Source of the DNA: Polynucleobacter sp. AP-Sving-400A-A2
Lineage (GTDB): Bacteria; Pseudomonadota; Gammaproteobacteria; Burkholderiales; Burkholderiaceae
Direction: 5' to 3'
Assembly (NCBI RefSeq): GCF_018688155.1
Contig: NZ_CP061312.1
Span: 1,798,001-1,862,000, forward strand
Length of the DNA: 64,000 nucleotides
The position numbers and the translations under genes are program-made. Below, in pieces: positions 5,345-56,187 of this stretch. The notes beneath the pieces were generated by a model. It had not been told where the DNA came from and did not search any database. It saw only the letters and a list, made by a program, of their open reading frames with translations. Numbering within the stretch: the stretch's first letter is position 1; each line of letters opens with the position of its first letter.

Positions 5345-5391
5345 CATTACTACTAAGGTAATTTTTGTCTAAATTCCGTATCATCTACGCT

Positions 5392-5835
5392 ATGGAACAG
5401 AAAGAAAGAATTATTAAGAAGTATGCGAGCAGAAGGTTATATGACACCTTTGACAGCGAATATATTGCTTTCAAAGAGCTTCAAAATCTTATTACTAATG
5501 GCATACCCCTCAAAATAATTGATGCCAAAACCAAAGAAGATGTGACTCACTCTGTAATTGTCAGTCTTGTCTTAGAAAATACAGACTTGCTTAGTCAATT
5601 CTCTGATGAATTTCTTAAAAATGTTATTAGTCTTTATGGAAAAGGGCAACAACAGCGAGAATTGTTTGGGGTATATTTTCAACAATCTTTGATGGTATTA
5701 ATTAATACCCAAAGTAAATTCACTGACTCTGCAAATGTTGATGCTTTGGCTTATGTCACAGAGTTAGGTAAACAACATCAAAAGTTAAGTGAAAATTTTA
5801 TGAATGAACTTTTGAAGCTTGGCAAACAAACTTAG
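5392..5835 (+). CDS. PhaR-like regulator (polyhydroxyalkanoate synthesis repressor family)
   Basis: The N-terminus IIKKYASRRLYDT followed by a YI-F-KELQNLI helix and VIDAKTKEDVTHSVI is the hallmark of the PHB accumulation regulator DNA-binding domain. The rest matches its C-terminal half in length. PhaR proteins bind both DNA and PHB granules and repress phasin genes. Finding one on a mobile element is unusual. It may have been recruited as the element's own regulator. ATG at 5392 is chosen; a TTG at 5365 with AAGGT upstream would add nine residues. Its 3' end overlaps the convergent gene by 51 bases. Confidence 0.75.
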   Translation: MEQKERIIKKYASRRLYDTFDSEYIAFKELQNLITNGIPLKIIDAKTKEDVTHSVIVSLVLENTDLLSQFSDEFLKNVISLYGKGQQQRELFGVYFQQSLMVLINTQSKFTDSANVDALAYVTELGKQHQKLSENFMNELLKLGKQT

Positions 5836-54596: not shown

Positions 54597-55025
54597 TTAA
54601 ATCTCTAACGCTTTTGGCTGTTGAGCCGCATGCGGATGACTGGCGTCGCCGTAGACTTTTAATTTCTTAATCATGGCATAACCTAGTGGGCCTTTTGGCA
54701 ACATACCCTTCACAGCCTTCTCCAAAGCGCGACCTGGGAAACGGTCTTGCATCTTGTCGAAGTTAGTCGAACTAATACCACCTGGGTATCCGCTGTGACG
54801 GTAATAAATTTTATTCAAGCCTTTTGTGCCTGTAACACGTAGCTTAGAAGAATTGATGACAACAATGAAGTCGCCGGTATCAACGTGTGGGGTGTATTCA
54901 GGCTTGTGCTTGCCGCGTAGACGGAGTGCCACTTCACTGGCGACACGACCGAGGACTTTGTCCGTAGCGTCAATCACGAACCATTCATGCACCACCTCAT
55001 GGGATTTTGCAGAAAAAGTTTTCAT
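54597..55025 (-). CDS. rplM: 50S ribosomal protein L13
   Basis: This 142-residue L13 starts [20 protein letters not shown] and contains [25 protein letters not shown] and YRHSGYPGG. It is an early-assembly 50S protein. The promoter lies close upstream, leaving a very short leader of about 10 bases, so no room exists for a structured autoregulatory leader. Confidence 0.99.
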
Positions 55026-55038
55026 GATTTCTCAAATT

Positions 55039-55067
55039 GTTATAGTCAAAAAAATTACTCCAATCAA
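55039..55067 (-). promoter_or_regulatory. Sigma-70 promoter of rplM-rpsI
   Basis: TTGATT (55062-55067) and TATAAC (55039-55044) on the minus strand are exactly 17 bases apart. Transcription would start about 55032, only some 7-8 bases before the rplM ATG at 55025, giving an almost leaderless mRNA. A longer mRNA from another start is not excluded. Confidence 0.6.
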
Positions 55068-55183
55068 ACTACGTCCACCTTGGCCCTGCTTATGTTTGCA
55101 AGCTCGCAGATTCTGTAATTTACTTGGTAAAACAATTACCGCTGACTGGTTTGGTAATTCAGTAAAGCCTTGAATTGTAACCC

Positions 55184-55285
55184 AAAAAAAACCCAGGAAC
55201 TAGTCCTGGGTTGGAATCCACCTATGTCTAAGTGGAGGAGACACTGGGCGGTAAATCAATCTCTTATATAAGACTGACTACCAAT
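55184..55285 (-). ncRNA. Predicted small RNA with anti-Shine-Dalgarno motif
   Basis: A complete small-RNA gene can be read on the minus strand of the 417-base gap between rplM and the OsmC gene. A strong promoter (TTGCGT-17-TACAAT) is followed by about 100 transcribed bases and an intrinsic terminator: AACCCAGGA/TCCTGGGTT (55190-55212) plus a run of eight U (55184-55191). In the middle, TCCACTTA/TAGGTGGA pair over 8 bp with a four-base GACA loop (55217-55236). The motif CTCCTCC (55234-55240), complementary to the Shine-Dalgarno sequence, lies at the base of this hairpin. No reading frame of note is present. It could repress mRNAs at their ribosome sites. I recall toxic small RNAs described in betaproteobacteria, but cannot confirm homology. 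Confidence 0.7.
55190..55212 (-). terminator. Intrinsic terminator of the predicted small RNA
   Basis: This is a 9-bp perfect stem AACCCAGGA/TCCTGGGTT with a five-base loop, followed on the minus strand by eight T (55184-55191). Its direction shows that something is transcribed leftward through this gap, yet no leftward protein gene lies before it. Confidence 0.9.
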
Positions 55286-55291
55286 GTGGTT

Positions 55292-55320
55292 ATTGTATCG
55301 AGAAATATGGTGCAACGCAA
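55292..55320 (-). promoter_or_regulatory. Sigma-70 promoter of the predicted small RNA
   Basis: TTGCGT (55315-55320) and TACAAT (55292-55297) on the minus strand are separated by 17 bases. Transcription would start near 55285. Confidence 0.7.
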
Positions 55321-55325
55321 GAATA

Positions 55326-55339
55326 TTGACCAAAATCAA
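55326..55339. promoter_or_regulatory. FNR/Anr-like box
   Basis: TTGAC-CAAA-ATCAA matches the TTGAT-N4-ATCAA consensus at 9 of 10 positions. Its centre is about 47 bases before the predicted small-RNA start, close to but not exactly at the usual activating position, and about 110 bases before the OsmC start. Confidence 0.35.
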
Positions 55340-55442: not shown

Positions 55443-55868
55443 ATGGAATGTCAAGTAAGTTGGTTGGGTAATAGCGGCATGGCGTTTTCGGCAAAAACAG
55501 GCAGTGGTCACCAAGTCACTATGGATGGTCCGCCTGAAGCTGGAGGCAAAAATAGCGCCCCAAGGCCTATGGAGCTAATTTTGGCGGGGACTGGGGGCTG
55601 TTCTGCCTTTGATGTGGTTGCAATCCTACAAAAGGCTCGCCAAGAGGTTAGCGCCTGCGATGTCCAACTAAAAGCCGAGCGGGCGGAGACTGAGCCCAAA
55701 GTATTTACCAAAATTAACCTGCATTTCACAGTCAAAGGCAAAAACCTCGATTTATCCAAGGTTGAGCGTGCAGTGAAGTTGTCCCACGAAAAGTATTGCT
55801 CCGCGACAACCATGCTCGCCAAAACGGCAGAAATTACTTACTCCATCAACGTTATGAATGACGAATAA
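55443..55868 (+). CDS. OsmC-family peroxiredoxin-like protein (YhfA-like)
   Basis: This 141-residue protein has the OsmC fold with two redox cysteines in GTGGCSAFDVVAIL and EKYCSATTMLAKT. OsmC proteins reduce organic hydroperoxides; the YhfA branch, which this resembles in length, is less well defined. It is the only rightward gene here, and its 3' end faces rnpB 15 bases away. AGGGATC before the ATG is a modest ribosome site. Confidence 0.9.
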   Translation: MECQVSWLGNSGMAFSAKTGSGHQVTMDGPPEAGGKNSAPRPMELILAGTGGCSAFDVVAILQKARQEVSACDVQLKAERAETEPKVFTKINLHFTVKGKNLDLSKVERAVKLSHEKYCSATTMLAKTAEITYSINVMNDE

Positions 55869-55882
55869 GTCTTGAGAAAGTG

Positions 55883-56187
55883 CAGAGTCAATCGATAAGC
55901 CGGATTCTGTCGCCTAGATTTGCATCTAGGGGCAATCATTCCTCTAGGCCGGCAGTTACCTGACGGCTCAAGCTCCCTACCCGCAGACTCAGCGGGACGC
56001 CTCATCGCCTGCTTACTTGGGATTGCTCCAGGTGGAGGTTACCGCGTTTCACCGTAACTAAATACGCTCGTCTCTGTGGCCCTATTCCTCACGTCACCGT
56101 GGATGGCCGTTAGCCATCACCCTTCCCTATGGAGTCCGGACTTTCCTCCCCCTCAATAAAGAGGCGGCGATTGCCCAATTGACTCTG
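55883..56187 (-). ncRNA. rnpB: RNase P RNA (bacterial type A)
   Basis: The minus strand contains the universal RNase P RNA core: GGAAAGTCCGGACTCCATAG near 56125-56150, GGGTGATGGCTAACGGCC, the P-loop regions with GCGGTAACCTCC, and ATAAGCCGGATT near the 3' end. The P1 helix closes the molecule by pairing CAGAGTCAAT (5' end, 56178-56187) with ATTGACTCTG (3' end, 55883-55892), which sets the ends to within a few bases. It is the ribozyme that matures tRNA 5' ends. Length, about 305 bases, is a little shorter than in E. coli. Confidence 0.95.

What the first reader, a model, noticed from the sequence alone, without database searches (positions are those of the whole stretch)
55184..55339. Unannotated small RNA with promoter, hairpins, anti-Shine-Dalgarno motif and terminator
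A 417-base gap between rplM and an OsmC gene contains a complete leftward transcription unit with no protein. It has a TTGCGT-17-TACAAT promoter, an 8-bp hairpin with CTCCTCC at its base, and a 9-bp intrinsic terminator with eight U. The motif is complementary to ribosome-binding sites, so the RNA could shut off many mRNAs or pair with 16S-like targets.
Basis: partly seen in the sequence, partly recalled or inferred. Interest (0 to 1): 0.72.

Follow-up and report, generated by a model that had tools for sequence, protein, structure and literature searches.

The report
Carbon-storage-linked ribosome-site-blocking small RNA
The gap holds a real, already catalogued kind of bacterial small RNA that can mask ribosome-binding sites, and its control region suggests that the cell's sensor of stored carbon (PHB) switches it on, so that cells with full stores would stop importing nutrients.

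Summary
On the minus strand, 55183-55243 matches Rfam RF02278, Betaproteobacteria_toxic_sRNA (51.4 bits, gathering score 50). The genome is a Polynucleobacter. The stems covary and UGUCUCCUCC is invariant in the 18 sequences aligned. So the RNA is a new member of a known, partly characterised family (ncS27 and relatives; S17 is similar).

What appears new is the wiring. The -35 element lies inside a palindrome that matches published binding sites of PhaR, the PHB-sensing repressor. In Burkholderiales, the published PhaR core YGCRNYGCR lies within 150 nt upstream of 58 of 74 RF02278 loci in genomes with PhaR, but 1 of 34 in genomes without; 26 of 30 phasin genes and 9 of 133 other gene starts have it. 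Six anti-SD RNAs lie just behind phasin genes. Seed matches at Polynucleobacter start codons fall mostly on solute-binding proteins (23 of 29 frames, many orthologous).

Proposed: PHB granules titrate PhaR, the RNA is made, uptake genes are silenced. Transcription, PhaR binding and target repression are inferred. The PhaR contrast is confounded by phylogeny.

The parts
55184..55285 (-). predicted primary sRNA, about 102 nt, from the promoter to the end of the U run
   Evidence: promoter spacing, terminator, fold z -5.2; 5' end inferred
55183..55243 (-). RF02278 core (about 60 nt), possible processed short form
   Evidence: Rfam 51.4 bits; covariation; processing inferred from relatives ncS27 and S17
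55234..55243 (-). anti-Shine-Dalgarno seed UGUCUCCUCC
   Evidence: invariant in 18 of 18 aligned genus sequences
55217..55236 (-). hairpin 1, 8 bp
55184..55212 (-). hairpin 2 and U run, intrinsic terminator, 9-bp stem
55249..55283 (-). 5' hairpin of the longer form, not part of the Rfam model
   Evidence: poorly conserved in sequence
55292..55297 (-). -10 element TACAAT
   Evidence: TAnAAT-like in most relatives
55315..55320 (-). -35 element TTGCGT
   Evidence: not reported by the consensus scan
55308..55320 (-). PhaR-type box TTGCGTTGCACCA (core TGCGTTGCA 55311-55319), overlapping the -35 element
54597..55025 (-). rplM, neighbour downstream of the sRNA
   Evidence: Pfam Ribosomal_L13
55443..55868 (+). 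OsmC-like gene, divergent neighbour
   Evidence: Pfam OsmC

Best explanation
The feature is a member of Rfam RF02278, a trans-acting anti-Shine-Dalgarno sRNA of Burkholderiales, transcribed leftward from about 55285 to 55184 and probably cut to a short form of about 60 nt that starts at UGUCUCC. Its promoter overlaps a binding site for PhaR, the PHB-sensing repressor. When carbon is in excess and PHB granules form, PhaR is drawn onto the granules, the promoter is freed and the RNA accumulates. Its mostly unpaired UGUCUCCUCC pairs with GGAGGAGACA-like ribosome-binding sites of a limited set of mRNAs, mostly for solute-binding proteins that take up carboxylates and amino acids, and stops their translation: a 'stores are full' brake on nutrient uptake. 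Shown here: family membership, conserved structure, seed and position, the box and its co-occurrence with PhaR, the bias of seed sites. Inferred: transcription, processing, PhaR binding, direction of regulation, target repression.
For: Family: 51.4 bits, gathering score 50; a match at E<=0.001 somewhere in 103 of 121 genus genomes, 91 of 96 good ones, and at E<=1e-5 in 98 of 200 order genomes. Structure: 8 of 17 pairs with changes on both sides, 92.5% of cells paired, covariation score reached by 0 of 500 shuffles. Box: exact match to the footprinted H. seropedicae PhbF site. YGCRNYGCR within 150 nt upstream: 58 of 74 loci with PhaR, 1 of 34 without; 121 of 943 other windows, 9 of 133 other ORF starts, 26 of 30 phasin genes, 13 of 30 phaR genes; by family 20 of 21 versus 1 of 10. 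Loci picked by the OsmC protein: 55 of 71 hold the RNA, and 55 of these 55 have the box. Phasin link: anti-SD RNAs 56-60 nt behind a phasin gene in L046, L048, L054, L055, L056 and 33 nt behind one in L224 of another family. PHB genes here: phaR, phaC, phasins; one phasin gene has two such boxes in front. Targets. Literature passages: relatives raised in glucose medium, biofilm and starvation, ncS27 overexpression slows growth; ncS27 affects amino-acid and carbohydrate uptake; S17 is cut by RNase E, has 32 transporter-related genes or operons among its targets and an unknown repressor is postulated; PhaR leaves the phaP promoter for granules; PhaR represses the sRNA MmgR in S. meliloti.
Against: No expression or binding data for this organism. 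The PhaR contrast follows clades: families are nearly all PhaR-positive or all PhaR-negative, and the two mixed families (f9, f42) decide nothing. In the hold-out the strict published consensus was not significant (3 of 20 versus 1 of 18) and the longer set was marginal (6 of 20 versus 1 of 18, p 0.09). Not every copy has the box: 2 of 7 in the two other-genus genomes of the own family, 4 of 9 in f7. In the genus 28 of 40 rplM-locus sequences have YGCRNYGCR and 30 of 40 have TGC-N3-GCA, although PhaR is found in 116 of 121 genomes. The better-scoring phasin gene of this genome (892565) has no TGC-N3-GCA within 250 nt upstream. In this genome the strict box pattern occurs 52 times and 25 of the 30 sites looked at lie inside frames of 80 aa or more, so the box alone is weakly specific. 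Seed sites with an ATG are not more frequent than the reversed control in this genome (13 versus 14). The genus target loci are largely orthologues of a few genes.
Confidence: 0.66

Rival explanations
1. It is an RF02278 anti-SD sRNA, but PhaR has no part in it: the conserved box is a clade-specific form of the -35 region, or the site of another regulator.
For: TTGC is also present at the -35 region of many PhaR-negative loci without the palindrome. PhaR status and clade are confounded. 10 to 12 of 40 genus loci lack the box while PhaR is nearly universal.
Against: The downstream half of the palindrome is not part of a -35 hexamer and is kept; in several families the box lies upstream of a separate -35-like TTGC (by eye); phasin genes, the known PhaR targets, show the box at a like rate (26 of 30 versus 58 of 74); anti-SD RNAs lie behind phasin genes.
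Confidence: 0.24
2. It is a growth-arrest RNA: an anti-SD decoy that blocks translation broadly when expressed, as the name 'toxic sRNA' suggests.
For: Family name; growth inhibition on overexpression reported for relatives.
Against: S17 did not impair exponential growth of E. coli. GGAGGAGA occurs 25 times in this genome, one of them the RNA's own complement, against 35 for the reversed control, and four lie 5-7 nt before an ATG with a long frame. Part of the motif is in a stem.
Confidence: 0.06
3. It is a cis element of rplM: an attenuator or leader whose read-through feeds rplM-rpsI, so that its place before rplM is the point.
For: Same strand as rplM, 158 bases from its start codon, and the order is kept in 41 of the 41 genus loci with rplM in view.
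Against: Most of the order-level RF02278 copies were not checked for rplM, but multi-copy genomes and the phasin-linked copies show that the RNA is not tied to rplM; a separate -10-like TACAAT follows the terminator at 55174-55179.
Confidence: 0.04

Closest known systems
Rfam RF02278 Betaproteobacteria_toxic_sRNA; double-hairpin RNAs ncS03, ncS05, ncS27, ncS62 of Burkholderia cenocepacia (PMC5688073, passages); Hsnc059/063/086/107 of Herbaspirillum seropedicae (PMC7011215, passages)
   Same: Over the curated score; two hairpins, CU-rich anti-SD stretch, intrinsic terminator; predicted targets at ribosome-binding sites of transport and carbon genes
   Different: One copy over the cut-off in this 2.0-Mb genome instead of three to five in Burkholderia; a longer form with a 5' hairpin is predicted; a PhaR box is not mentioned in those papers (word searches)
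S17 of Bordetella pertussis (PMC11722255, passages)
   Same: Similar 5' seed according to that paper; long form cut to a short form; transporter-related targets
   Different: Long form is 190 nt; tied there to the Bvg mode and an unidentified repressor; its sequence was not compared here
MmgR and the alpha-r8 sRNAs (SisA-D) of Alphaproteobacteria (PMC12542648, PMC8401924, PMC12559287, passages)
   Same: Works alike: anti-SD 10-mer (reported for alpha-r8), repressed by PhaR (AniA), linked to PHB
   Different: Another class of bacteria; common descent with RF02278 was not tested
anti-hemB RNA, RF02837
   Same: Burkholderia sRNA with a similar terminator half
   Different: 23.3 bits, below its gathering score of 49.5

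Membership tests
RF02278 Betaproteobacteria_toxic_sRNA | Covariance-model score over the gathering threshold | tested here: met
   51.4 versus 50 bits, model 1-64
RF02278 Betaproteobacteria_toxic_sRNA | Two hairpins, the second an intrinsic terminator | tested here: met
RF02278 Betaproteobacteria_toxic_sRNA | UGUCUCCUCC anti-SD stretch | tested here: met
   present at 55234-55243; invariant in 18 of 18 aligned genus sequences
RF02278 Betaproteobacteria_toxic_sRNA | Growth inhibition on overexpression | not testable with these tools
   reported for relatives
PhaR (PHB_acc_N) regulon | PhaR and PHB genes in the genome | tested here: met
   PF07879 at 1008652, PhaC_N at 1010729, Phasin_2 at 892565 and in L077
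PhaR (PHB_acc_N) regulon | Published PhaR-type site at the promoter | tested here: met
   TTGCGTTGCACCA 55308-55320
PhaR (PHB_acc_N) regulon | Site tracks the presence of PhaR | tested here: inconclusive
   58 of 74 versus 1 of 34, but confounded with clade
PhaR (PHB_acc_N) regulon | PhaR binding, and derepression when PHB forms | not testable with these tools
   needs gel shift and RNA measurement
alpha-r8 / MmgR sRNA family | Sequence and structure homology | not tested
   only the working principle is compared
anti-hemB RF02837 | Score over the gathering threshold | tested here: not met
   23.3 versus 49.5 bits

The most novel reading that the evidence does not exclude
The RF02278 'toxic sRNA' family of Burkholderiales is the RNA arm of the PHB-sensing PhaR regulon: filling carbon stores draw PhaR off DNA and switch on an anti-Shine-Dalgarno RNA that shuts nutrient uptake, with a second route in some lineages where such an RNA is carried in the 3' part of a phasin mRNA. 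Together with MmgR of rhizobia, PhaR plus an anti-SD RNA would be a recurrent storage-to-uptake feedback in two classes of Proteobacteria.
Probability: 0.62. Interest if true: 0.72.

Novelty: new member of a known kind. Interest (0 to 1): 0.55.

Why it matters
The family is named after an effect of overexpression ('toxic'), and none of the papers I read passages of names what switches it on; the S17 authors postulate an unknown repressor. A PhaR site would give the family a signal (PHB granules), a direction (on while stores fill) and an output (less uptake), all directly testable in a laboratory strain. It matters for PHB production, because removing or adding this brake should change how much carbon goes into storage, and for freshwater Polynucleobacter, whose 2-Mb genome keeps one copy over the cut-off.

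Tried and rejected
Broad-toxin reading: not favoured, because exact seed sites are few and those at start codons lean to uptake genes. rplM-leader reading: not favoured (see rivals). anti-hemB family: below threshold. PhaR presence inside the genus as a discriminator: useless, 116 of 121 genomes have it, including those whose sRNA lacks the box. Weak own-genome RF02278 hits: of 10 I looked at four (L002-L005); none shows the seed at its 5' side, they look like ordinary terminators. Weak second copies L047, L051, L052, L053 carry AGTCTCCTCC and are not beside a phasin; not followed.

Motif history in full. I noticed the box by eye and recalled the PhbF site, then found it in PMC3206438. Definitions tried: TGC-N3-GCA; strict TTGC-N3-GCA-N-CA; a longer set to which I added TTGC-N3-GCACAA after seeing the first loci; and YGCRNYGCR, taken from PMC12542648 after the hold-out and applied unchanged, but to the same loci. 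First set (70 loci): core 41 of 54 versus 3 of 16, longer set 31 of 54 versus 0 of 16, strict 18 of 54 versus 0 of 16. Hold-out (38 loci): core 13 of 20 versus 3 of 18 (p 0.0036), longer set 6 of 20 versus 1 of 18 (p 0.09), strict 3 of 20 versus 1 of 18 (not significant). YGCRNYGCR: 42 of 54 versus 0 of 16, then 16 of 20 versus 1 of 18. PhaR genes themselves are a weaker positive control: TGC-N3-GCA in 10 of 30 within 150 nt.

Rows dropped or limited: L044 had no regex match and was left out of the 40-locus genus set (41 loci with rplM); six loci missed by the regex were placed; 30 of 52 own-genome box sites were examined; 18 of 26 distinct core sequences went into the covariation count; L350 (8-codon frame) was left out of the 30 target loci, and 28 of the 58 target matches were given no locus of their own by the tool (repeats of a genome are mostly without one); target and control frames were limited to 80 aa or more. 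In one search four further seed sites precede a GTG or TTG frame (L275, L278, L279, L289); I did not count them as targets. Order-level loci were those the tool listed, best scores first.

Full report
WHAT IS THERE. The gap between rplM (Ribosomal_L13) and an OsmC-like gene is 417 bases. On the minus strand Rfam RF02278, Betaproteobacteria_toxic_sRNA, matches 55183-55243 from model position 1 to 64 at 51.4 bits (gathering score 50, E 9.8e-9). RNase P RNA lies close by at 55880-56186. The organism is a Polynucleobacter: the nearest named OsmC loci are P. hallstattensis and P. bastaniensis, 94% identical. One copy in this genome is over the cut-off.

STRUCTURE AND CONSERVATION. The predicted 102-nt transcript folds at -38.1 kcal/mol (z -5.2) into three hairpins; the 60-nt core has two (z -3.6). 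UGUCUCC is almost wholly unpaired, and the last UCC of CUCCUCC opens hairpin 1. Among 18 genus sequences (of 26 distinct) UGUCUCCUCC is invariant; 8 of 17 pairs show changes on both sides; 0 of 500 shuffles reach the covariation score and sliding the pairing destroys it. Mean column identity over 41 gaps is 0.89 in the core, 0.64 in the 5' part of the transcript, 0.58 upstream of the promoter and 0.81 in the rplM leader. An RF02278 match was found somewhere in 103 of 121 genus genomes at E<=0.001, in 75 over the cut-off, and in 91 of 96 good genomes; and in 98 of 200 order genomes at E<=1e-5, 63 of 108 genera. Of 51 genus loci read, 41 have rplM next to the RNA, one ends at a contig end with OsmC in view, and nine are second or only weak copies elsewhere. 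The RNA also lies in front of OsmC in seven loci outside Polynucleobacter (Ideonella, Rubrivivax, Rhodocyclaceae and other Burkholderiales records); rplM was confirmed within reach in three of them.

THE PROMOTER AND PhaR. TTGCGT-17-TACAAT is not found by the E. coli-type scan but is kept as TTGC...TAnAAT in the main clade. The -35 element is half of the palindrome TTGCGTTGCACCA. This is the exact reverse-complement form of TG[N]TGC[N]3GCAA, the site footprinted for PhbF (PhaR) of Herbaspirillum seropedicae, which represses phbF and phaP1 (passages of PMC3206438). It also fits the S. meliloti PhaR core YGCRNYGCR (passages of PMC12542648). The genome encodes PhaR (two PF07879 matches), PHB synthase, and phasins at 892565 and in locus L077. 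The L077 phasin gene has two TGC-N3-GC(A) boxes just upstream; the 892565 gene has none in 250 nt.

TEST. I took 108 RF02278 loci from the order draw (70 first, 38 as a hold-out) and split them by presence of PF07879 in the genome (138 of 200 genomes positive). YGCRNYGCR within 150 nt upstream: 58 of 74 PhaR-positive loci, 1 of 34 PhaR-negative loci (Fisher p 1.5e-14). Controls: 121 of 943 other windows, 9 of 133 other ORF starts, 26 of 30 phasin genes, 13 of 30 phaR genes. With TGC-N3-GCA the totals are 54 of 74 and 6 of 34. By family, 20 of 21 families with PhaR-positive loci have a box in at least one locus, against 1 of 10 families with PhaR-negative loci; two families count on both sides. 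PhaR status follows clades, so these are not independent events and the p values overstate the case. Not every copy has the box: 2 of 7 in the two other-genus genomes of the own family, 4 of 9 in f7. The strict published consensus was weak in the hold-out (3 of 20 versus 1 of 18). A third set, drawn with the OsmC protein and overlapping the genus set, held the RNA in 55 of 71 loci, and 55 of those 55 had the box; it favours close relatives and misses the box-less subclade.

A SECOND ROUTE TO PHB. Of 40 genus loci, 10 lack TGC-N3-GCA, mainly a small-genome subclade. Five weak RF02278-like RNAs in the genus (28-31 bits, TGTCTCCTCGG..., L046, L048, L054, L055, L056) start 56-60 nt behind a phasin gene on the same strand. 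For three of their genomes (G006, G027, G116) the rplM-locus RNA was read too and lacks the box. In f22, the one PhaR-positive family without a box, the single locus examined (L224) starts 33 nt behind a phasin gene.

TARGETS. GGAGGAGA occurs 25 times in this genome, one of them the RNA's own complement (35 for the reversed control). Four sites lie 5-7 nt before an ATG with a long frame, and all four genes are solute-binding proteins: two TctC, one Peripla_BP_6, one DctP. With GGAGGAG-N3-9-ATG there are 13 sites (14 for the reversed control), 9 frames of at least 80 aa, 5 of them solute-binding proteins. With AAGGAGA instead there are 30 sites, 19 such frames, 2 of them TctC (Fisher p 0.02, small numbers). 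In 41 genus genomes GGAGGAGACA-N0-8-ATG occurs 58 times, in 25 genomes (1 for the reversed control). Of 30 loci given, 29 had a usable frame: 16 TctC, 7 Peripla_BP_6, 2 amino-acid permeases, 4 oxidoreductase or TPP-enzyme genes. Many are orthologues of each other.

HOW IT PROBABLY WORKS. PhaR leaves the phaP promoter for nascent granules while PHA is made (passages of PMC11332829). By the same logic the sRNA is derepressed while stores fill and then closes ribosome-binding sites of uptake genes. This fits reports on relatives: higher ncS03, ncS05 and ncS27 RNA in glucose medium, biofilm and starvation, and slower growth on ncS27 overexpression (passages of PMC5688073); effects of ncS27 on amino-acid catabolism and carbohydrate transport (review PMC10987360, passages); 32 transporter-related genes or operons among S17 targets, RNase E processing, and a postulated unknown repressor (passages of PMC11722255). 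In S. meliloti PhaR represses MmgR, an sRNA of the alpha-r8 family that limits PHB (passages of PMC12542648 and PMC8401924), and alpha-r8 RNAs share an anti-SD 10-mer (passages of PMC12559287). Whether RF02278 and alpha-r8 share descent was not tested.

NOVELTY. The RNA is a new member of a known family. I saw no statement that PhaR controls RF02278 RNAs in the listings (capped lists; most papers in them unread), and whole-word searches for PhaR, PHB, phasin, PhbF and polyhydroxy terms in PMC5688073, PMC4603805, PMC11722255 and PMC7011215 gave nothing but one reference title; PMC10987360 has no PhaR or polyhydroxy. Two key papers were not read: Kimelman 2012 is not held, and the ncS27 paper of 2019 was seen only in reference lists. 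PMC5688073 mentions a common upstream motif for three of four homologues in a supplementary figure that I could not see; it may be this box.

Noticed in passing
window 55026-55183 (-): The 158 bases between the sRNA terminator and rplM are conserved in the genus (mean identity 0.81; block 55083-55102 0.91), contain TACAAT at 55174-55179 and match no Rfam family at E<=5: a candidate rplM (L13) leader.
   Followed up: partly
window 5365-5835 (+): A second PhaR-like frame (PHB_acc_N, 70 bits) besides the one near phaC; 4 of 121 genus genomes show two PHB_acc_N matches.
   Followed up: partly
L005, 1524-1552: The sRNA terminator sequence (29 bp, 96.6% identical) recurs elsewhere in this genome behind a small gene that looks like a cold-shock protein (by eye).
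   Followed up: no
L047, L051, L052, L053: Short RNAs with AGTCTCCTCC and two hairpins, 31-37 bits to RF02278, not beside phasin genes: perhaps another anti-SD sRNA type in the genus.
   Followed up: no
L071, L083, L086, L088, L089: Five further TTGC-N3-GCA-N-CA sites of this genome that lie in no frame of 80 aa or more, near genes that look like a Crp/Fnr regulator, a formate dehydrogenase and a Mg-chelatase (names by eye): a possible wider PhaR regulon.
   Followed up: no
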